Program-made: the position numbers and the translations under genes
The notes under the pieces: generated by a model
The model's database searches: none
What the model was told of the DNA's origin: nothing
The model's input: the letters and a program-made list of their open reading frames with translations, nothing else
Assembly (NCBI GenBank): GCA_004144865.1
Contig: SEAY01000027.1
Span: 1-35,450, forward strand
DNA length: 35,450 nucleotides
Origin: Comamonadaceae bacterium
GTDB lineage: Bacteria > Pseudomonadota > Gammaproteobacteria > Burkholderiales > Burkholderiaceae_C
Direction of reading: 5' to 3'
In this document: in pieces, positions 3,685 to 35,450 of the stretch
How positions within the stretch are numbered: position 1 is the first letter of the stretch
Layout: each line of letters opens with the position of its first letter

Positions 3685-4496
3685 AATTTGCCATGCCGAA
3701 GGCGCCGCGTGCGGTCGCCGCAACGCTGCTGGCGCTGTCGCTGGCAGCGCTGCAGGGGTGCGCCACCACGCAGACCGCGCGCAACCCGCGCGATCCGTGG
3801 GAGCCGTTCAACCGGCAGGTGACGGAGTTCAACGACGACGTCGACCGCGTGGTGCTCAAGCCCTCCGCGACCTGGTACCGCGAGAAGGTGCCGCCGCTGG
3901 TGCGCACCGGCGTGGCCAACTTCTTCGGCAACCTCTCCGATGCCTGGTCCGCCGTCAATTCGCTGCTGCAGTTCCGGCTGCAGGAGGCGGAGGAGAACTT
4001 CGCGCGCTTCCACGTCAACACGATGTTCGGCGTGTTCGGCATCTTCGACGTGGCCAGCGACCTCAACATCGAGCGCCACCGCGAGGACTTCGGCCAGACC
4101 CTGGGCCGCTGGGGCGTGCCTGCGGGCCCTTACGTGGTGCTACCGCTGTTCGGGCCCTCGACGCTGCGCGATGCGGTGGCGATGCCCGTGGACGGCCGCT
4201 TCGACCTCGTGCGCCAGATCGACCCCACCGGCACCCGCACCGCGCTGTACACCCTGCGCGTCGTCGACAAGCGTTCCAACCTCCTGCGCGTGAGCAACGT
4301 GCTGGAAGAAGCGGCGCTGGACCGGTATTCCTTCACGCGTGATGCCTACCTCCAGCGGCGCCGCGCCGAAGTCAGGCAAGCCCCGGAGAGCAGCGAAGTC
4401 CCGCCGCCGCTTCCGGACGACGTGCGGTACGACCTCGACCTGCCGCCGGCACCGGCCGCGCCGGCCGGACAACCCGCGCCCGCCCCCGGCCGATGA
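3681..4496 (+). CDS. mlaA: Phospholipid-binding lipoprotein MlaA (VacJ)
   Basis: MlaA is the outer-membrane lipoprotein that, with a porin, extracts misplaced phospholipids from the outer leaflet and hands them to MlaC. The 271-residue protein begins with a lipoprotein signal (about residues 1-26) and a lipobox LQGC with the lipidated cysteine at 27. A VacJ domain follows: DPWEPFNRQVTEFND near 35, NFFGNLSDAWSAVNSLLQ, and EDFGQTLGRWGVPAGPYVVLPLFGPSTLRD. The C-terminal 40 residues are proline- and alanine-rich and probably disordered. In E. coli mlaA is unlinked to mlaFEDCB; here it lies between mlaD and mlaC and is coupled to mlaD by an ATGA overlap. Confidence 0.95.
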   Translation: MKFAMPKAPRAVAATLLALSLAALQGCATTQTARNPRDPWEPFNRQVTEFNDDVDRVVLKPSATWYREKVPPLVRTGVANFFGNLSDAWSAVNSLLQFRLQEAEENFARFHVNTMFGVFGIFDVASDLNIERHREDFGQTLGRWGVPAGPYVVLPLFGPSTLRDAVAMPVDGRFDLVRQIDPTGTRTALYTLRVVDKRSNLLRVSNVLEEAALDRYSFTRDAYLQRRRAEVRQAPESSEVPPPLPDDVRYDLDLPPAPAAPAGQPAPAPGR

Positions 4497-4601
4497 CTGG
4501 TTGCATGCTGTTGCGCGCATTCCGCGCCACGGCCGAACCCGGCGGCGCCGTTGGGTTCCAATCGAGAGGAATCCGGGCCCGGCCCGGCACAAAGGATGCA
4601 G

Positions 4602-5249
4602 ATGAAGAGACGTAACCTGGTTCAACTGGCTGCCGCCGTGTTGGCCTCCACCCTCATGGCCGGCGTGATGCCGCTGGCGCATGCCCAGGAAGCCCCGGAC
4701 GCGATGATCAAGCGCCTGTCCGACGAGGTGCTGGCCGAGATCCGCAGCGATGCGGCCATCCAGGCGGGCGACATCGACAAGGTGATGGCCCTGGTGGACC
4801 GCAAGGTCATGCCCAACGTGAACTTCCAGCGCATGACGGCCTCCGCAGTGGGCCCGGCCTGGCGCCAGGCCACGCCGGAGCAGCGCCAGCGCTTGCAGCA
4901 GGAATTCAAGACGCTGCTGGTGCGCACCTATTCCGGCGCGCTGTCGCAGGTGTCGAACGAGCAGGTGCAGATGAAGCCGCTGCGCGCCGCGCCCACCGAC
5001 ACCGACGTGGTGGTGCGCAGCGAGATCCGCGGCCGCGGGGACCCGATCCAGCTCGAATACCGGATGGAGAAGGCCGACAGCGGCTGGAAGATCTACAACC
5101 TGAACGTGCTGGGCGTGTGGCTGGTGGAAACCTACCGCAGCCAGTTCGCGCAGGAAGTCAACGCCAAGGGCATCGACGGACTGATCGCGAGCCTGGCCGA
5201 GCGCAACAAGACCAACGCCGGCAACGGCAATGGCGTGCGCAAGGGCTGA
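4602..5249 (+). CDS. mlaC: Periplasmic phospholipid-binding protein MlaC
   Basis: MlaC is the soluble carrier that shuttles phospholipids between MlaA and the MlaFEDB complex. I chose the ATG at 4602 because AAGGA lies 5 bases upstream and translation then begins directly with a signal peptide (MKRRNLVQLAAAVLAS... cleaved after AHA, about residue 27). An in-frame ATG at 4596 is a close alternative. The mature part shows the family pattern VMPNVNFQRMTASAVGPAWRQ, then FKTLLVRTYSGAL and a C-terminal GWKIYNLNVLGVWLVETYRSQF. The product is 215 residues. A 105-base spacer with no recognised signal separates it from mlaA. Confidence 0.94.
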   Translation: MKRRNLVQLAAAVLASTLMAGVMPLAHAQEAPDAMIKRLSDEVLAEIRSDAAIQAGDIDKVMALVDRKVMPNVNFQRMTASAVGPAWRQATPEQRQRLQQEFKTLLVRTYSGALSQVSNEQVQMKPLRAAPTDTDVVVRSEIRGRGDPIQLEYRMEKADSGWKIYNLNVLGVWLVETYRSQFAQEVNAKGIDGLIASLAERNKTNAGNGNGVRKG

Positions 5250-5254
5250 GCGCG

Positions 5255-5527
5255 GTGCTGGTACTCCCGCAGCAGCTCACGCACGCCGAGGCGCCGGCCT
5301 GCTGCCGCATGCTGGCGCAGGCGCTGCGCTCGGAGGCCGGCACGCAGGCCGTGGCCGATGCTTCCGCGCTGGATCGCTTCGACAGTTCCGCGCTCGCCGT
5401 GCTGCTGGAGTGCCGGCGCGAGGCGCTGGCCCTGGGCAAGACTTTCGCGGTCAGCCAGTTGCCGGCGCGCCTGCGGGAGCTGGCCACGCTCTATGGCGTG
5501 GCCGACCTGCTTCCCGCCGCGGCGTAG
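5255..5527 (+). CDS. mlaB: STAS-domain protein MlaB
   Basis: MlaB is the small cytoplasmic STAS protein that binds MlaF and is needed for activity of the lipid transporter. The 90-residue reading uses a GTG at 5255, with AAGGG 9 bases upstream and only 5 bases after the mlaC stop. The core DASALDRFDSSALAVLLECRREAL carries the D-S-S loop typical of STAS domains, and the C-terminal helix ends RELATLYGVADLLPAA. Its position directly after mlaC matches the E. coli order. The non-ATG start is inferred; no ATG exists in a sensible place. Confidence 0.88.
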   Translation: MLVLPQQLTHAEAPACCRMLAQALRSEAGTQAVADASALDRFDSSALAVLLECRREALALGKTFAVSQLPARLRELATLYGVADLLPAAA

Positions 5528-5568
5528 GTCTTCCCGGGGCCCGGCCGGCCCGGCCGGGGGTGCCCCCG

Positions 5569-5574
5569 TAAAAT
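5569..5574 (+). promoter_or_regulatory. Candidate -10 box for the ABC-2 pair
   Basis: TAAAAT (5 of 6 match to TATAAT) lies 12 bases before the ATG of the next gene and follows a GC-rich palindromic stretch (5535-5566) that could end the mla transcript. No convincing -35 box is visible. If used, the transcript would start about 6 bases before the ATG and be nearly leaderless. Confidence 0.3.
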
Positions 5575-5586
5575 GGCGGGCTCCCC

Positions 5587-6507
5587 ATGCCTGCCATCTC
5601 CTTCCAGTCCGTCTCCAAGACCTACAGCACGCCCCGCGGCCAGTTCCAGGCCCTCGACGGGGTCACCTTCGACATCGAGGAAGGGGAGTTCTTCGGGCTC
5701 CTCGGCCCCAACGGCGCGGGCAAGACCACCCTCATCAGCGTGCTGGCCGGACTGGTGCGCGCGAGCTCGGGCCGCGTGCTGGTGCACGGGCACGACGTGC
5801 AGAAGGACTATGCGCAGGCGCGCCGCCAGCTCGGCGTGGTGCCGCAGGAACTGGTGTTCGATCCCTTCTTCTCGGTGCGGGAAGCGCTGCGCATCCAGTC
5901 CGGCTATTTCGGCGTGAAGAACAACGACGCCTGGATCGACGAACTGCTGGAGAACCTGGGCCTGGCCGACAAGGCGCAGTCGAACATGCGCCAGCTTTCG
6001 GGCGGCATGAAGCGCCGCGTGCTGGTGGCGCAGGCGCTGGTGCACCGGCCGCCGGTGATCGTTCTGGACGAGCCCACCGCGGGGGTGGACGTGGAACTGC
6101 GCCAGACCCTGTGGCAGTTCATCGCCCGGCTGAACCGGCAGGGACATTCGGTGCTGCTCACCACCCACTACCTGGAAGAAGCGGAGGCGCTTTGCAGCCG
6201 CATCGCCATGCTGAAGGCGGGGCGCGTGGTCGCGCTGGAGCGCACGAGCGAGCTGCTGAAGGCCGCTTCGAGCAACGTGCTGCGCTTCAAGCTCGATGGT
6301 GACCTGCCGCGCGAATTCGAGGGCAAGGCGCGCGTCACCGGCCGCATCGTGCAGCTGCCCGCGCACGACGCGCACGAGATCGAGCAGCACCTGGCCGTGA
6401 TCCGGCAGGCGGGGCTGCGGGTGGAGGACGTCGAGATCCGCAAGGCCGACCTCGAGGACGTGTTCATCGACGTGATGGCGGCCGGCGGGCGGGAGGTTGC
6501 CGCATGA
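5587..6507 (+). CDS. ABC-2 type transporter, ATP-binding subunit (YadG-like)
   Basis: This is the cytoplasmic ATPase of a two-gene exporter. The 306-residue protein has Walker [10 protein letters not shown] (residues 40-48), a Q-loop at [12 protein letters not shown], the signature [15 protein letters not shown], Walker [15 protein letters not shown] and the switch TTHYLEE. After about residue 220 there is a C-terminal extension of the kind found in YadG/CcmA-type ATPases. It overlaps the permease start by 4 bases (ATGA). The substrate is unknown. In E. coli this slot is empty (mlaB is followed by ibaG). Confidence 0.93.
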
Positions 6508-7259
6508 CCGGCTGGCAAACGCTCCTGTACAAGGAAGTGCTGCGCTTCTGGAAGGTGAGCTTCCAGACCGTCGCCGCGCCCGTGCTCACCGCGCTGCTGT
6601 ACCTGCTGATCTTCGGCCACGTGCTGGCGGACCACGTGAAGGTCTACGACACCATCAGCTACACGGCCTTCCTGGTGCCGGGCCTGGTGATGATGAGCGT
6701 GCTGCAGAACGCCTTCGCCAACAGCTCCTCGTCGCTGATCCAGAGCAAGATCATGGGCAGCCTGGTGTTCGTGCTGCTCACGCCGCTGTCGCACTGGAGC
6801 TGGTTCATCGCCTACGTCGGGTCCTCCGTGGCACGCGGGCTGTGCGTGGGGCTGGGCGTCTTCATCGTGACGGCCCTGTTCACGCAGGTCTCGTTCGCGG
6901 CGCCGCTGTGGATCCTGGTGTTCGCCGTGCTCGGCGCGGGCATGCTGGGCGCGCTGGGGCTGATCGCCGGCCTGTGGGCCGAGAAGTTCGACCAGATGGC
7001 GGCCTTCCAGAATTTCGTGATCATGCCGATGACCTTCCTGTCCGGCGTGTTCTATTCGATCCATTCGCTGCCGGCGTTCTGGCAGCGCGTCAGCCACCTC
7101 AACCCGTTCTTCTACATGATCGACGGTTTCCGCTACGGCTTCTTCGGCGTCAGCGACGTCTCGCCGTGGATGAGCCTCGCGATCGTGGGCAGTGCCATGC
7201 TGGTGGTGAGCGGCATCGCCGTGCACCTGCTGCGCATCGGTTACAAGATCCGCGGGTAA
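6504..7259 (+). CDS. ABC-2 type transporter permease (YadH-like)
   Basis: This is the integral-membrane partner of the preceding ATPase. The 251-residue protein has about six hydrophobic helices. It carries typical ABC-2 permease features: an N-terminal amphipathic stretch (TLLYKEVLRFWKVSFQTVAAP), then FLVPGLVMMSVLQNAFANSSSSLIQSKIMGS, and near the end MPMTFLSGVFYSIHSLPAFWQRVSHLNPFFYMIDGFRYGFFG. The last motif is characteristic of the YadH/NodJ family. No substrate can be read from sequence. Confidence 0.92.
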   Translation: MTGWQTLLYKEVLRFWKVSFQTVAAPVLTALLYLLIFGHVLADHVKVYDTISYTAFLVPGLVMMSVLQNAFANSSSSLIQSKIMGSLVFVLLTPLSHWSWFIAYVGSSVARGLCVGLGVFIVTALFTQVSFAAPLWILVFAVLGAGMLGALGLIAGLWAEKFDQMAAFQNFVIMPMTFLSGVFYSIHSLPAFWQRVSHLNPFFYMIDGFRYGFFGVSDVSPWMSLAIVGSAMLVVSGIAVHLLRIGYKIRG

Positions 7260-7270
7260 GCTCCCTTTCC

Positions 7271-7513
7271 ATGACCGCCGACGAACTGCGCTCCCTCATC
7301 GCCTCCGGGCTGCCCTGCGACCACATCGAGGTGGAGGGTGACGGCCGCCACTGGCAGGCGGTGATCGTGTCAGCCGAGTTCGCCGGTTTGCGTGCGATCC
7401 AGCGGCACCAGCGCGTGTACCGCACGCTGGGTGCGAGAATGCATAACGACGAGGTACACGCCTTGTCGATGAAGACATTCACGCCCGAAGAATGGGCGGC
7501 ACTTCCACACTGA
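7271..7513 (+). CDS. ibaG: BolA/IbaG family protein
   Basis: This small (80-residue) BolA-fold protein is of the IbaG (YrbA) type, thought to work with monothiol glutaredoxins in iron-sulfur cluster handling and linked to acid stress. The family core [38 protein letters not shown] contains the invariant histidines, and the C-terminus reads [15 protein letters not shown]. It lies between the transporter genes and murA, as ibaG does in E. coli (mlaB-ibaG-murA). Only 11 bases separate it from the permease stop. Confidence 0.92.
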
Positions 7514-7518
7514 GGCCC

Positions 7519-8780
<1,262 letters not shown>

Positions 8781-8784
<4 letters not shown>

Positions 8785-9449
8785 GTTCTGCGGGACGACC
8801 CGCCATCACGCTGGCCCTGTCGAAAGGGCGCATCTTCGAGGAGACCCTGCCGCTGCTGGCGGCCGCGGGGATTTCCGTGCTGGAAGACCCCGAGAAGTCG
8901 CGCAAGCTGATCCTGCCGACCAGCAACCCGGACCTCCAGGTGGTGCTGGTGCGCGCCAGCGACGTGCCCACCTACGTGCAGTACGGCGGGGCGGACCTCG
9001 GCGTGACCGGGCTGGACACCCTCATCGAGCACGGCGGCCAGGGCCTGTACCAGCCGCTCGACCTGCAGATCGCGAAGTGCCGCGTGAGCGTGGCCGTGCG
9101 CTCGGATTTCGACTACGCGTCGGCCGTGCGGCAGGGCGCGCGCCTGAAGGTGGCCACCAAGTACGTGGGCATCGCGCGCGAGTTCTTCGCGGCCAAGGGC
9201 GTGCACGTGGACCTGATCAAGCTGTACGGCAGCATGGAACTTGCGCCCCTCACCGGCCTGGCCGACGCCATCGTGGACCTGGTGTCCACCGGCGGCACGC
9301 TGAAGGCGAACAACCTGGTGGAAGTGGAGCGCATCATGGACATCAGCTCGCGGCTGGTAGTCAACCAGGCCGCGCTCAAGCTCAAGCAGGAACCCATCCG
9401 CCACCTCATCGACGTTTTCCAGCGGACCGTCACCGCGCGATCCCAATGA
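8781..9449 (+). CDS. hisG: ATP phosphoribosyltransferase, short form
   Basis: HisG condenses ATP with PRPP in the first step of histidine synthesis. The product is 222 residues, the short form that lacks the C-terminal regulatory domain and needs the HisZ subunit, which is not in this window. Family motifs are [16 protein letters not shown] at the N-terminus, [15 protein letters not shown], and the PRPP-binding segment [18 protein letters not shown] near the end. The start overlaps the murA stop and the stop overlaps the hisD start. Confidence 0.96.
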
Positions 9450-28691: not shown

Positions 28692-28746
28692 TAAAATCGG
28701 CAGCTTTGGCCGCCGTGGCGGCGCCTTGGAAAAGGCGCGTGGCGGC
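28692..28746 (+). promoter_or_regulatory. secA -10 box and bistable leader
   Basis: TAAAAT (28692-28697) is a good -10 candidate without a clear -35. Just downstream, GCCGCC (28709-28714) can pair with either of two identical GTGGCGGC copies (28715-28722 and 28739-28746). The second pairing encloses a 7-bp stem GCGCCTT/AAGGCGC with a GGAA loop (28721-28738). The two folds exclude each other. The 195-base M23-secA spacer holds no gene and no secM-like ORF that I can recognise. Confidence 0.4.
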
Positions 28747-28828
28747 TCCACTTGATCCTGCTGAACAACAAAAGGACTGCGCTGTCCGGTTCCGCCCCCG
28801 TGCGGACCGTGACGACAACCGCGCCCCC

Positions 28829-31609
<2,781 letters not shown>

Positions 31610-31657
31610 GCAGGGCCTTAGGGTGCGAGCTTAACCATCGACAACGCTCTGTAAGCA

Positions 31658-31698
31658 ACCCCTGTCAGAAATGACAGGGGTGAGGCCGCATGAGCGGC
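31658..31698 (+). promoter_or_regulatory. Two tandem hairpins in the leader of the autoinducer synthase gene
   Basis: ACCCCTGTCA and TGACAGGGGT form a perfect 10-bp stem with a GAAA tetraloop (31658-31681). GCCGC-ATGA-GCGGC (31685-31698) follows three bases later. The synthase start is 47 bases further on and has a GAGGAG ribosome site (31731-31736), itself next to a CTCA/TGAG dyad (31721-31733 region). The first stem may end secA transcription, though no T-run follows, or act as a cis-regulatory RNA or operator. Confidence 0.5.
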
Positions 31699-31745
31699 GG
31701 ACTTTCTCTTCAATGGGCGACTCAAGCAATGAGGAGTAGTTGTCC

Positions 31746-32999
31746 ATGGAAGTCGTTGAGAACCACACACCCGCCGCCGTCCGTAGCGCCCCGGGCGCCG
31801 AACCCGGCTTGTCGCCCCACCTGCGCGAACGCATCGAGACGCAGTTCCGCCAGCGGTGGGAGCAGGACTGGAAGCGCCGGTTCGTCACCCACGGCGTGAC
31901 GCCCGGGCCGGACGCCGTCCGGCTCGACGGCAACGACTACCTGTCCGTGACGGGCCGGCCGGAAATCGTGCAGGCCCAGCTGGATGCCCTGCGGTGCAAT
32001 CGCGAGTTCGTCGTGCAGTCCGGGGTGTTCCAGCTCGACGGCAGCCCGACCTCCCGTTTCGAAGCCGCGCTGGCCGCCTTCGTGGGCAAGGAGGGTGCGC
32101 TGCTGTGCCAGTCCGGCTACACGGCGAACCTCGGCCTGATCCAGGTGATCGCCGACCCCCAGACGCCCGTCTACGTGGACAGCCTGGCCCACATGTCGCT
32201 GTGGGAGGGCGTGCGGGCCGCCGAAGCGCCGGCGCATTCCTTCCGCCACAACGATCCGGACCACCTGGACCGCATGATCCGCCGCCAGGGGGGCGGCGGG
32301 CTCGTGATCGTCGATTCCGTCTACAGCACCACCGGCGCCCTGTGCCCGCTGGAGGCGATGGTGGAAGTGGCGGAGCGGCACGGCTGCATGATCCTGGTGG
32401 ACGAATCCCATTCGCTCGGCACGCACGGACCCGAAGGCCGCGGCCTGTGCGCCGAACTGGGCCTGACGCATCGCGTGCACTTCATCACGGCCAGCCTGGC
32501 CAAGGCCTTCGCCGGGCGTGCCGGCTTCTTCACCCTGCCCGACGAGCTGCGGCCCTACCTCATGTGCCACAGCTATCCGAGCATCTTCAGTTCCTGCCTG
32601 TTGCCGCACGAGATCGCCGGCCTGGCCGCCACGCTCGAAGTCGTGCGCCACAGCGATGAGGCGCGCCGCAAGCTGCGGGCCAACACCGTGCGGCTGCGGA
32701 CCTCGCTCGGCGCGCTGGGCTATCCGATCCAGCACGGCAGCGAGCAGATCCTTTCGCTGGAAGCCGGCCCGGAAGTCGACACCCTGGCGTTGCGCGATGC
32801 GATCGAGGCCCGCGGCATCTTCGGCGCCGTTTTCTGCGCGCCGGCGACCAGCCGCAACCGGTCCATGGTGCGCCTCACGTTGAACGCGTCGCTCACCGAC
32901 GCCGAGATGTCGCACCTGGAGGCCGTGGCGGCCGAACTGGCGCCGCGGTTCAAGCCCTGGGACTGGCCCATCGCGCGCCGCCTGAAGGGCCGCGAGTAG
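31746..32999 (+). CDS. cqsA: CqsA-type alpha-hydroxyketone autoinducer synthase
   Basis: This is a PLP-dependent acyltransferase of the alpha-oxoamine synthase family, specifically the CqsA/LqsA/JqsA branch that joins an acyl-CoA with an amino-acid-derived unit to make CAI-1/LAI-1-like signals. The 417-residue protein carries HMSLWEGVR and HNDPDHLDRMI, then VIVDSVYSTTGALCPL, VDESHSLGTHGPEGRG (PLP-binding Asp/His region) and HFITASLAKAFAGRAGFF, with the PLP lysine at about 253. As I recall the Vibrio CqsA sequence, these blocks match it much more closely than BioF, Kbl or ALAS. ATG 31746 has GAGGAG 9 bases upstream; a TTG at 31740 is less likely. It converges with the regulator gene (14 bases between the stops). 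Confidence 0.92.
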   Translation: MEVVENHTPAAVRSAPGAEPGLSPHLRERIETQFRQRWEQDWKRRFVTHGVTPGPDAVRLDGNDYLSVTGRPEIVQAQLDALRCNREFVVQSGVFQLDGSPTSRFEAALAAFVGKEGALLCQSGYTANLGLIQVIADPQTPVYVDSLAHMSLWEGVRAAEAPAHSFRHNDPDHLDRMIRRQGGGGLVIVDSVYSTTGALCPLEAMVEVAERHGCMILVDESHSLGTHGPEGRGLCAELGLTHRVHFITASLAKAFAGRAGFFTLPDELRPYLMCHSYPSIFSSCLLPHEIAGLAATLEVVRHSDEARRKLRANTVRLRTSLGALGYPIQHGSEQILSLEAGPEVDTLALRDAIEARGIFGAVFCAPATSRNRSMVRLTLNASLTDAEMSHLEAVAAELAPRFKPWDWPIARRLKGRE

Positions 33000-33013
33000 G
33001 CAGGCGCGCCGCC

Positions 33014-33991
33014 TTAGTCCTGCACGTGCCGCTTGGGCTGGCGCGCCAGCCAGCGGTTGTAGCTGTTGTCGGGGTCGGGGCCGGCGGGCGCCTCGACCGG
33101 GAACAGCGCGCCCAGCAGCGTCCCGTTCTCGCCGATGGGGATCGCGTCGACCAGCGCCGGCGGGTGCGTGGAGGCCAGCGCCTGGCGCAGCTCGATGTCG
33201 GCCAGCTTCGTGCCGGCGCGGATCGCCTCCACCGCCGCCGCGGGCACGCCCGCGACCGTGGCCAGCTCCGCCAGCGCATGCAGGCCCTGCGGCGTCTCCA
33301 GCTGCAGCCAGCCGATCGCGCCGTTGGCGTCCATCCCCAGCACGCCGAAGGGAGCGCCGATCACCACGTGCTCCACCCAGTGCCTGGCGGAGTACGCCGC
33401 CAGCCAGCTGTCCACGCCCGGGGCGCGCAGCAGGGCGCTTTGTTCCGGCGTGAGGGTGGAGCGCCAGATCTGCGCGTGGCGCGCGTGCGCCGTGAACAGC
33501 AGCCGGTCCACCGCCTCGATCAGGCGGCGCGAGATGTCCTGCGTCTGCTTGGGGATGAACTGGTCGATCAGGCCGCGGTTGAAGGCACGCACGGCGACCT
33601 GTTCGTCGGCCTGGCCGGTGAGCAGCACGCGCGAGCCGGGCCAGTCCGCCAGTTCGGCGAGGGCCTGCAGGCCGTCCATCCCGGGCATGGAGAAGTCGAC
33701 GACGCACACCCGCGAGAGCGCGTAGCGCTCCGTATAGCGCGACCAGTAGGCCAGGATCTGCGGGATCAGCGGCTTGCCTTCGCGCCACAACCCGATCAGC
33801 TGCTGCTGGTTCCAGGCATCGGCTTCCCAGAACGGCGGCTCCTGCAGCAGGTGGGCGATGCAGTCGGACGGGCGCAGGAACAGCTTCACGTGCCAGTGCC
33901 GCGGAAGCACCAGCGCCAGCATCTCCAGGTAGTCGGGATCGTCGTCCAGGAAGACGACGGTGCCGGGGCGGTGGAAGAGGGGGAAGGTCAT
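33014..33991 (-). CDS. Response regulator with receiver insertion and unknown output domain (LqsR/JqsR-like)
   Basis: This 325-residue response regulator belongs to the quorum-sensing locus. The receiver is recognisable: acidic residues D16-D18 in VVFLDDDPD, phosphoacceptor Asp99 in VCVVDFSMPGMDGLQ, Thr125 in VLLTGQ and Lys148 in FIPKQT. Asp99 lies about 45 residues later than usual because of an insertion (about 45-92) rich in Trp and Gln. Residues 170-325 form a separate domain with no visible helix-turn-helix, HD-GYP, GGDEF or EAL motif. It starts 27 bases after the kinase stop with no clear ribosome site. LqsR/JqsR identity is inferred from context and architecture. Confidence 0.8.
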   Translation of the reverse strand: MTFPLFHRPGTVVFLDDDPDYLEMLALVLPRHWHVKLFLRPSDCIAHLLQEPPFWEADAWNQQQLIGLWREGKPLIPQILAYWSRYTERYALSRVCVVDFSMPGMDGLQALAELADWPGSRVLLTGQADEQVAVRAFNRGLIDQFIPKQTQDISRRLIEAVDRLLFTAHARHAQIWRSTLTPEQSALLRAPGVDSWLAAYSARHWVEHVVIGAPFGVLGMDANGAIGWLQLETPQGLHALAELATVAGVPAAAVEAIRAGTKLADIELRQALASTHPPALVDAIPIGENGTLLGALFPVEAPAGPDPDNSYNRWLARQPKRHVQD

Positions 33992-34018
33992 GTCGTGCGG
34001 CGCGCCGGTCGCATTGTG

Positions 34019-35347
34019 CTACGCGGCCGGCAGGTCGATGGTGAAAACGGCGCCCTGGTGCGGGGCCGACTTCACCCGGATGGTGCCGTGGGCGGCATGG
34101 ACGACCCGCTGGCAGAACGCCAGCCCCAGGCCGTGCCCGGTGCCGCGGTCGGTGGAGAAGAACGGCTGGAAGATGCGCTTGCGCAGGTCGGCGTCCATCC
34201 CCACGCCGTTGTCGGTGAAGGCGATGCGTCCGCGCTGCCCCAGCGAGCCGATCTCGATCAGCAGGTCGCCGGGCTGCGGCGCCGAGGAGGCGGCGGCCAG
34301 CGAGCGCAGGGCGTTCTTGGTCAGGTTGTCCACCACCTGCGCGAAGAGGTCGCGCGAGCCGGTGAAATGGAAGTCGTTGTGCACGCGCACCAGCACCGCC
34401 TGCTTCTCGCGGCTGCTGCGGAACGGGTATTCGGCCAGGGCCGAGCGCACCAGTTCGGCCGCCGACACGCGTTCGGCGTGGCCGCCCAGGCGCATCAGCC
34501 GCGCATTGGTGATCTGCATGTCGATCTGGTGGTTCATGTTGCGCACCAGGTGCGCCAGGCGCAGCCCGAGCTGCTGCAGGCGTTCGCCGTTGTCGCCCCC
34601 GACCTGCGGCGCCTCGTTGCGCACCGCTTCGGCGATCAGCTGCATCGTTGCAAGAGGCGTGCGCAGTTCGTGCGCCATGATCCCCATGGTGCCCAGCGTG
34701 TGATTGAGCTGCTCGCGCCGCAGGTTGGACGAGGACAGGCCGAGCACCAGGCCCATGAACCAGCTGAACGCGAGCACCACGGTGTTGGTCGCGGCCTGCT
34801 CGAATCCGATCGGCGGCGAGGGCGGGCCGAAGGCCTCGAACAGCAGCCAGGCCACCACCAGCCCGCTGGTGGACCCCAGCGTGGCCAGGCGCCAGTCGGT
34901 CAGGTGGTAGTAGATCAGGAGCATCGCGCCCACGCTGGCCAGCCAGACCGCGTTGCCGCTGTTCGCGAAGTACATCCAGAAGAAGAACAGCGGCAGCGTC
35001 ACCCAGAAGATGAGCGAGAAGGTGAGGGCGGCCGCGCGGGTGGGCGGCGACGCGCTGATCCCGGGCAGGACGAGCAGGCCCAGCCCGGCCACGGCCATCA
35101 GCACCCGCAGCACCAGGTTCTCGTAGGGCTGCGGCAGCCACAGGGCCCACATCAGCCAGAAGACCGGGTGGCCGACCATCGTGGACACGCCCAGCGCGCG
35201 GATGCGCCACTGGGACGGATGGAGGATGGGCTCCACCAAGGGCTGCACCACCTCGGTGGAGGTCCACTGCCGCAGCCGCTGCTTCATGGCGATGAGCAGC
35301 GCGCGCGGAGGCGGGGAATAGGCAGCCCGGTGCAGGTCCTCGTTCAT
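34019..35347 (-). CDS. CqsS/LqsS-type membrane sensor histidine kinase
   Basis: This is the likely receptor of the alpha-hydroxyketone signal. The 442-residue protein has six hydrophobic helices (about 55-71, 78-98, 105-126, 132-148, 153-173, 186-207) and a cytoplasmic kinase core. The H-box is MAHELRTPLATM with His226, followed by the N-box NLTKNALRSL, DNGVGM, FQPFFS and GTGHGLGLAF. The first sensor helices contain PQPYENLVLR, nearly the PQSYENLGLR that I recall in Vibrio CqsS. Unlike CqsS there is no fused receiver; the regulator is the next gene. ATG 35347 is preferred; an in-frame GTG at 35398 would add 17 residues. Confidence 0.88.
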   Translation of the reverse strand: MNEDLHRAAYSPPPRALLIAMKQRLRQWTSTEVVQPLVEPILHPSQWRIRALGVSTMVGHPVFWLMWALWLPQPYENLVLRVLMAVAGLGLLVLPGISASPPTRAAALTFSLIFWVTLPLFFFWMYFANSGNAVWLASVGAMLLIYYHLTDWRLATLGSTSGLVVAWLLFEAFGPPSPPIGFEQAATNTVVLAFSWFMGLVLGLSSSNLRREQLNHTLGTMGIMAHELRTPLATMQLIAEAVRNEAPQVGGDNGERLQQLGLRLAHLVRNMNHQIDMQITNARLMRLGGHAERVSAAELVRSALAEYPFRSSREKQAVLVRVHNDFHFTGSRDLFAQVVDNLTKNALRSLAAASSAPQPGDLLIEIGSLGQRGRIAFTDNGVGMDADLRKRIFQPFFSTDRGTGHGLGLAFCQRVVHAAHGTIRVKSAPHQGAVFTIDLPAA

Positions 35348-35450
35348 GAGCGTGGGTCCGAAGGTGATATTGTCACAGCCCGGCGGTGTGCCATTCACGA
35401 TTGCGCATGGGGATCCCTGTTAACTTTGACAGTGTCAGCCTGGATGGCAT
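35348..35450. promoter_or_regulatory. Upstream region of the sensor kinase gene with TGTCA/TGACA dyads
   Basis: This stretch to the window edge has no gene that I can support. It holds GTGATATTGTCAC (35364-35376, a GTGA/TCAC dyad), and TGACAGTGTCA (35427-35437), a perfect palindrome around a central G. TTGACA at 35426-35431 could be the -35 of a rightward gene outside the window. These may be regulator-binding sites for the divergent transcripts. Confidence 0.35.

What the first reader, a model, noticed from the sequence alone, without database searches (positions are those of the whole stretch)
31610..35450. Complete alpha-hydroxyketone quorum-sensing module (synthase, sensor kinase, response regulator) in a Comamonadaceae-like genome
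Seen: a PLP enzyme with the CqsA-branch blocks HMSLWEGVR, VDSVYSTTG and DESHSLGTHGPEG, convergent with a six-TM kinase bearing PQPYENLVLR and a separate response regulator. Known: CqsA/CqsS (Vibrio), LqsA/LqsS/LqsR (Legionella) and JqsA/JqsS/JqsR (Janthinobacterium) use hydroxyketone signals. Inference: this bacterium makes and senses its own long-chain hydroxyketone. The system is compact and self-contained, next to secA on an otherwise housekeeping chromosome, and I know of no characterised example in this family. The kinase lacks the fused receiver of Vibrio CqsS, so signalling would run directly from kinase to the adjacent regulator without a phosphotransfer protein.
Basis: partly seen in the sequence, partly recalled or inferred. 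Interest (0 to 1): 0.85.

Follow-up and report, generated by a model that had tools for sequence, protein, structure and literature searches.

The report
Hydroxyketone signalling cassette with LuxR partner
A soil bacterium carries genes that look set to make and sense a fatty ketone signal, and right beside them, missed because the sequence piece ends there, a fourth conserved gene for a DNA-binding regulator; several related species lack the signal-making gene but keep this regulator pair.

Summary
The window ends in a Ramlibacter-like CqsA/LqsA-type synthase, an LqsR-type response regulator and a six-helix LqsS/CqsS-type kinase. As a system this is known, and published lists already include Polaromonas. 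(1) A fourth gene: the contig breaks 44 bases into a divergent LuxR-family gene, continued on another contig of the same genome. It sits in the same place in 73 of 74 named Comamonadaceae loci with room, a candidate DNA-binding output for a regulator family whose output is unknown. (2) The genes do not always travel together: of 37 same-genus genomes 35 have the regulator and 23 the synthase, one as a fragment; one secA-coaX site shows full, synthase-less, kinase-less and empty states. (3) At this site, 3 of 4 kinases from genomes without a synthase have lost the head-group Phe (V. cholerae F162); it is aromatic in 83 of 83 kinases examined from genomes with a synthase. Signal chemistry, phosphotransfer and the LuxR link are inferred. 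I call it a new variant of a known kind.

The parts
31746..32999 (+). CqsA/LqsA/JqsA-type PLP-dependent autoinducer synthase (417 aa; an upstream TTG at 31740 is the alternative start). The Schiff-base lysine is K253 in this numbering.
33014..33991 (-). LqsR-type response regulator (325 aa): atypical receiver with an insertion, plus the LqsR output domain. D16, D17, D99, T125 and K148 are present.
34019..35347 (-). LqsS/CqsS-type sensor histidine kinase, six N-terminal transmembrane helices, no receiver (442 aa; a GTG at 35398 is the alternative start). Phospho-acceptor H226.
35348..35406 (.). 59-base intergenic region shared by the divergent kinase and LuxR-family genes
35368..35378 (+). Conserved TATTGTCNCRG element, preceded by TGA (looks like an extended -10 for the LuxR-family gene; function inferred)
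   Evidence: 1 match in the window, 0.01 expected; TATTGTCNCR in 42 of 86 distinct intergenic regions; rate in single-base shuffles 0.0008
35407..35450 (+). 5' end of a divergent LuxR-family (GerE HTH) gene, cut by the contig end. The rest is on contig C143 of the same genome (L166:7830-8498 -, 222 aa).
   Evidence: (exact 119-base end overlap)
28706..31609 (+). secA, the left neighbour of the cassette site in the same-genus genomes (two of which match contigs named Caenimonas); not part of the system

Best explanation
This is an alpha-hydroxyketone quorum-sensing cassette of the Cqs/Lqs/Jqs kind, in a four-gene form found in many Comamonadaceae. The synthase joins an acyl-CoA to an amino-acid-derived co-substrate (S-adenosylmethionine by analogy with CqsA), giving an aminoketone that is converted to a hydroxyketone. 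The six-helix kinase reads the signal in the membrane and phosphorylates or dephosphorylates D99 of the adjacent LqsR-type regulator directly. That regulator has no recognisable DNA-binding domain. Its most likely route to transcription is the LuxR-family protein encoded divergently next to it, through contact or shared control. The regulator-LuxR pair is the conserved core; synthase and kinase are an input that several species have lost. Shown here: gene identities, fold of the regulator, conserved catalytic and sensor residues, gene order, co-occurrence, patchy synthase and kinase. Inferred: product, direction of ligand control, phosphotransfer, loss rather than gain, and the regulator-LuxR link.
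Against: No experiment bears on this locus. Residues 1-123 of the LuxR-type protein match no Pfam family and no PDB sequence, so a regulator-LuxR contact is a guess from gene linkage. The gene is missing at one Polaromonas locus (L127) and at two family plasmid loci with regulator but no synthase (L034, L035), and was found at 0 of 8 regulator-bearing loci outside the family (L036, L058-L060, L170, L171, L179, L180; L060 has an HTH-only match downstream of its regulator, L036 a different LuxR-type neighbour). 6 of 13 family genomes with a regulator but no synthase also lack it. JqsA/LqsA systems are described without it. The JAI-1 promoter motif of Janthinobacterium is absent from the window. 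The Fisher p-values ignore shared ancestry.
Confidence: 0.72

Rival explanations
1. An ordinary three-gene Lqs/Jqs system; the LuxR-family gene is a neighbour that happened to be fixed early in Comamonadaceae and has its own job.
For: Only the three genes are described for Janthinobacterium in the passages read (PMC3566124, PMC5080296). The LuxR-type gene was found at 0 of 8 regulator-bearing loci outside the family and not at two family plasmid loci.
Against: The linkage survives absence of both synthase and kinase and different chromosomal sites: 73 of 74 named loci, although only 28 of the 80 lie beside secA. In family genomes without synthase the two genes sit 70-178 bases apart, divergent, in 6 of 7. 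Where the regulator is absent from the secA-coaX site (G005, G007), the LuxR-type gene is absent from it too.
Confidence: 0.3
2. The LuxR-family protein, not the LqsR-type regulator, is a second receptor that binds the hydroxyketone or another acyl signal directly, as LuxR solos bind acyl-homoserine lactones.
For: Two LuxR-type proteins near other LqsR-type regulators do carry a Pfam autoinducer-binding domain: L036 (next gene) and L185 (about 1.2 kb away).
Against: 0 of 36 members of this family match that domain at E 0.01. The gene persists in genomes without synthase.
Confidence: 0.15
3. Synthase-less species keep a decaying relic; loss of the sensor Phe is relaxed selection and has no function.
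For: The Phe is replaced by Cys, Ser and Cys in separate lineages. A fifth, distant kinase (G005, elsewhere in its genome) has Ile there and its match is split over two ORFs. The four at the site average 1.25 changes at conserved positions against 0.23 in linked kinases.
Against: The four kinases at the site have no stops in their matches and keep H226, W135 and L202; they differ at only 1-2 of 77 positions conserved in synthase-linked kinases (highest linked value 3). All 12 regulators of no-synthase genomes at the site keep the receiver residues.
Confidence: 0.35
4. The PLP enzyme is a BioF/Kbl/serine-palmitoyltransferase-like enzyme of primary metabolism.
For: Same fold superfamily; scores of about 163-220 bits against those families.
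Against: Those scores are far below the curated cut-offs; the tree separates it; linked to kinase and regulator in 75 of 76 and 78 of 79 named loci with room.
Confidence: 0.02

Closest known systems
Jqs system of Janthinobacterium sp. HH01 (JqsA/JqsS/JqsR)
   Same: Three adjacent genes of the same families, including an LqsR-type regulator; Burkholderiales; deletion of jqsA changes violacein (PMC3566124, passages and section 22).
   Different: No LuxR-family fourth gene is mentioned in the passages read. Its TTGAN6/7TCAA promoter motif (PMC5080296, passages) is absent from the window.
Lqs system of Legionella pneumophila (LqsA/LqsS/LqsR)
   Same: Kinase without receiver, separate LqsR; full-length fold match to the LqsR structure 6sy9; LqsS too has small or aliphatic residues (T175/L176) at the tail-length gate, where this kinase has Leu.
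   Different: hdeD lies between lqsS and lqsR there. LqsS has Ser at the W104 position, where this kinase has Trp. No LuxR-type partner gene is described in the passages read.
Cqs system of Vibrio (CqsA/CqsS)
   Same: Homologous synthase (45% to V. campbellii) and homologous sensor; synthase and kinase convergent.
   Different: CqsS is a hybrid kinase feeding LuxU/LuxO; here there is no receiver on the kinase and an LqsR-type regulator instead.
LuxR solos
   Same: GerE-type HTH at the C-terminus (36 of 36), no LuxI gene beside it.
   Different: No detectable autoinducer-binding domain (0 of 36), which the survey PMC4338825 gives as part of the definition (abstract in listing); fixed divergent linkage to an LqsR-type regulator.

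Membership tests
CqsA/LqsA/JqsA autoinducer synthase | Curated family score over cut-off | tested here: met
   NF005526, 548.6 bits against 428
CqsA/LqsA/JqsA autoinducer synthase | PLP-binding lysine (CqsA K236) | tested here: met
   K253 aligned in the 3hqt alignment; lysine role from PMC3376566 section 10
CqsA/LqsA/JqsA autoinducer synthase | Branches with Vibrio CqsA, apart from BioF/Kbl/HemA | tested here: met
   45-row tree, 41 synthases apart from 4 outgroups, 100/99; outgroups have long branches and two are partial
CqsA/LqsA/JqsA autoinducer synthase | Makes aminoketones/hydroxyketones | not testable with these tools
   Needs an assay or mass spectrometry
LqsS/CqsS sensor kinase | Six transmembrane helices homologous to the CqsS sensor | tested here: met
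   Model helices; 30% over residues 69-166 of the 459-aa form against V. campbellii CqsS, 5e-11
LqsS/CqsS sensor kinase | Ligand residues W104, S107, F162 | tested here: met
   W135, S138, F194
LqsS/CqsS sensor kinase | Binds a hydroxyketone | not testable with these tools
   Needs a ligand assay
CqsS proper (hybrid kinase) | Fused receiver domain | tested here: not met
   Only HisKA and HATPase_c; so LqsS-like in architecture
LqsR response regulator | Full-length LqsR fold including the output domain | tested here: met
LqsR response regulator | Phosphorylatable Asp and receiver residues | tested here: met
   D99, T125, K148, D16, D17 invariant in the 43 rows of A2
LqsR response regulator | Phosphorylated by the neighbouring kinase | not testable with these tools
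   Needs purified proteins
LuxR-type acyl-homoserine-lactone receptor | GerE HTH | tested here: met
   2.9e-17; 36 of 36 members
LuxR-type acyl-homoserine-lactone receptor | Autoinducer-binding domain PF03472 | tested here: inconclusive
   No match at E 0.01 in 36 members; remote homology not excluded

The most novel reading that the evidence does not exclude
The LqsR-type regulator and its divergent LuxR-family partner form an older regulatory pair, a phosphorylation-controlled transcription switch. The hydroxyketone synthase and kinase are a swappable input to it. Species that lost the synthase but kept the kinase have independently changed the head-group gate of the receptor and now listen to other species' ketone signals.
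Probability: 0.25. Interest if true: 0.75.

Novelty: new variant of a known kind. Interest (0 to 1): 0.47.

Why it matters
The C-terminal part of LqsR has no known output function according to PMC3376566 (a 2012 review, passage), so how hydroxyketone signalling reaches transcription is open where such a regulator is used. A conserved LuxR-family gene beside the regulator gives a concrete, testable candidate in soil bacteria. The genus also offers natural producers, possible listeners and synthase-less regulator carriers at one chromosomal site, a ready comparative set for the evolution of signal loss and receptor change.

Tried and rejected
BioF/Kbl/ALAS identity of the synthase: rejected. A Vibrio-style phosphorelay from this kinase: rejected for lack of a receiver; a distinct hybrid kinase with two receivers and an Hpt exists elsewhere in the genome (L165) but lacks the ligand residues. 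Fold search of the kinase model hit mostly cytoplasmic kinase cores in the 50 rows shown, so it says nothing on the sensor. Below the first row the VIA list covers mainly the receiver. Paper searches: 'alpha-hydroxyketone + Burkholderiales + synthase' gave 0; 'hydroxyketone/LuxR/Comamonadaceae' (15 of 50 rows seen), a six-term search (15 of 41), 'Ramlibacter + quorum sensing' (20 of 50), and (10 of 14; 8 of 8): no row whose title or abstract start described a LuxR-family partner of a CqsA-type locus. The Ramlibacter passages concern homoserine lactone and a reference title. The library holds open-licence papers only, so this is not proof of novelty. Simple promoter and terminator scans of 31590-35450: none. 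The script mis-set its anchor for L192 and L195; searches show the LuxR-type gene there next to the regulator. The genome searches scored only the best 10, 7 and 6 first-look candidates per genome, so some matches may be missed.
Full report
What is there. The window is contig C49 of a 243-contig assembly. The nearest named relatives are Ramlibacter genomes, so this is a Comamonadaceae organism.

Synthase. It passes the curated cut-off of NCBIfam NF005526 (548.6 against 428 bits) and fails those of BioF, Kbl, ALAS and serine palmitoyltransferase. CqsA structures (CAI-1 autoinducer synthase) are the best PDB matches (3e-97), with the PLP lysine aligned (K253). In a 45-row tree the 41 synthases, the window's included, lie apart from four BioF/Kbl/HemA outgroups with support 100/99 (the outgroups are long-branched and two are partial; the Tistrella synthase in the set had no convincing kinase match in its locus). 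At phylum level 16 of 398 genomes, the own genome included, carry the family.

Kinase. Pfam shows HisKA and HATPase_c only. The model has six N-terminal helices, the sixth continuous with the dimerisation helix (mean pLDDT 83, pTM 0.58). The sensor matches that of V. campbellii CqsS (30%, 5e-11 against a small ORF set). In that protein Phe falls at position 175, the number that PMC3285556 gives for V. harveyi (passages), and it lies 24 residues before the phospho-histidine, as C170 does before H194 in V. cholerae. On this register W104, S107, F162 and C170 map to W135, S138, F194 and L202 (roles from PMC3376566, passages). W and S at the head-group site suggest Vibrio-like head-group recognition; the aliphatic tail gate resembles LqsS. 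This is inference, and tail length cannot be read off it.

A fourth gene. Contig C143 of the same genome ends with an exact 119-base overlap with the window's right end. There a LuxR-family protein (GerE HTH, 2.9e-17) is encoded divergently from the kinase. Its ATG is at window 35407, 59 bases from the kinase ATG. The link is supported by relatives in which the same arrangement lies on one contig. In the 80 named loci (the best 80 of 581 confirmed stretches, itself a capped list; many are the same genomes as G handles), 74 have an anchor gene and at least 900 bases of room, and 73 carry this gene divergent and adjacent; the exception is L127, where coaX follows instead. Polaromonas and Hydrogenophaga loci keep it although they do not lie beside secA. 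It was found at 0 of 8 regulator-bearing loci outside the family, not at two regulator-bearing plasmid loci of the family (L034, L035), and in 0 of 24 genomes of other families (E 1e-15). The intergenic region holds a TATTGTCNCR element in 42 of 86 distinct examples (single-base shuffles 0.0008); ATTGTC alone is in 68 of 86.

Do the genes travel together? In 299 family genomes the synthase is in 31, the regulator in 42, the LuxR-type gene in 36. Synthase and regulator co-occur in 29 (the two exceptions, G538 and G570, are distant synthases). Regulator and LuxR-type gene co-occur in 35; the one LuxR-type match without a regulator is a partial match in an incomplete genome (G718). One genome with synthase and regulator (G460, on different contigs) has no LuxR-type match. 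Thirteen genomes have a regulator but no synthase; seven of these have the LuxR-type gene, six of them directly divergent at 70-178 bases. Fisher p-values (1.7e-37 for regulator-LuxR) ignore ancestry.

One site, several states. In 37 same-genus genomes (own included; two match contigs named Caenimonas) the secA-coaX site shows: full set in 22, synthase fragment at a contig end in 1 (G019), kinase + regulator without synthase in 4 (G010, G023, G026, G035), regulator + LuxR without either in 6, regulator + LuxR with two other kinases inserted in 2 (G020, G036), no cassette in 2 (G005, G007). Limits: in G018 the parts lie on two contigs and the synthase match holds one stop; in G027 the contig begins too late to show secA; in G010 it ends before the LuxR position; G005 has a more distant regulator elsewhere. 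On a SecA tree of 36 of these genomes (G027 left out) the full state needs 9 changes, regulator-only 3 and kinase + regulator 3; 49 of 500 label shuffles were as low for the full state, so it is hardly clustered (single gene, five rows under half filled, no outgroup: the two that I meant to add had no secA in their loci). I read this as repeated loss of synthase and kinase with the regulator pair kept; repeated gain is not excluded.

Receptor gate after synthase loss. The ligand residues were taken from the literature before the synthase-less kinases were examined. F194 is Phe or Tyr in 81 of 81 distinct synthase-linked kinases (79 F, 2 Y), and Phe in two further copies whose strains have a synthase elsewhere (JS666 plasmid, G003 second copy). 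In the four kinases at the site in genomes without synthase it is C (G023), F (G026), S (G035) and C (G010) (Fisher 3.8e-5 for 83 of 83 against 1 of 4, ancestry ignored). A fifth, distant kinase of G005, elsewhere in that genome and with its match split over two ORFs, has I; with it the count is 4 of 5 lost. The four at the site have no stops in their matches and otherwise keep the conserved positions (1-2 changes of 77, against a mean of 0.23 and a maximum of 3 in the linked set that defined them). This fits retuning or relaxed constraint. The sample is small and one of six literature sites showed it.

Known or new. PMC3376566 (passages; [quoted passage not shown] The PMC3566124 Figure 7 legend (section 22) lists P. 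naphthalenivorans and R. tataouinensis synthases (the latter's genus name, Ramlibacter, is recalled). The three-gene core is therefore a new member of a known kind. I found no description of the LuxR-family partner in the searches named under Tried and rejected. JqsA work reports a promoter motif TTGAN6/7TCAA (PMC5080296, passages), absent from this window.

Verdict.

Noticed in passing
L034 (Polaromonas sp. JS666 plasmid 1, NC_007949.1) 6626-8987: Kinase and regulator of this type without a synthase nearby, beside brxC and other BREX-like genes on a conjugative plasmid, with a 147-aa HTH gene divergent to the kinase that the LuxR-type profile does not match.
   Followed up: partly
L035 (Rhodoferax ferrireducens T118 plasmid) and L036 (Massilia violaceinigra plasmid): LqsR-type regulators on plasmids without synthase or annotated kinase beside them. 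In Massilia the next gene is a DUF4902 + autoinducer-binding + GerE protein.
   Followed up: partly
L165 (G000:C135) 3988-7662: Second, hybrid kinase of the same genome (835 aa, two receivers, Hpt) with weak similarity to the kinase but without the ligand residues, next to a receiver-kinase. Similar kinases lie between regulator and secA in G020 and G036.
   Followed up: partly
L185, L186 and L197: Other LqsR-type regulators or related kinases with LuxR-family genes nearby: in G005 one with a full autoinducer-binding domain (L185) and one beside the distant kinase (L186), in G003 one lying between two regulators.
   Followed up: partly
L060 2669-2959: A GerE-type HTH match just downstream of an LqsR-type regulator in a genome of another family (G043); only the HTH part matches.
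   Followed up: no
L101 7001-8218: A Comamonadaceae synthase with neither kinase nor regulator matched in its 14-kb locus, 5.7 kb of it downstream.
   Followed up: no
G538 and G570: Two family genomes with a more distant synthase (39% and 48%) and no LqsR-type regulator match.
   Followed up: no
window 32990-33020: Synthase and regulator are convergent with 14 bases between stops; in many relatives the stops overlap by 4 bases or more, which could allow antisense effects.
   Followed up: no
Plasmid search list: LqsR-like regulators (about 22% identity) on four Legionella plasmid records; seen only as a listing.
   Followed up: no
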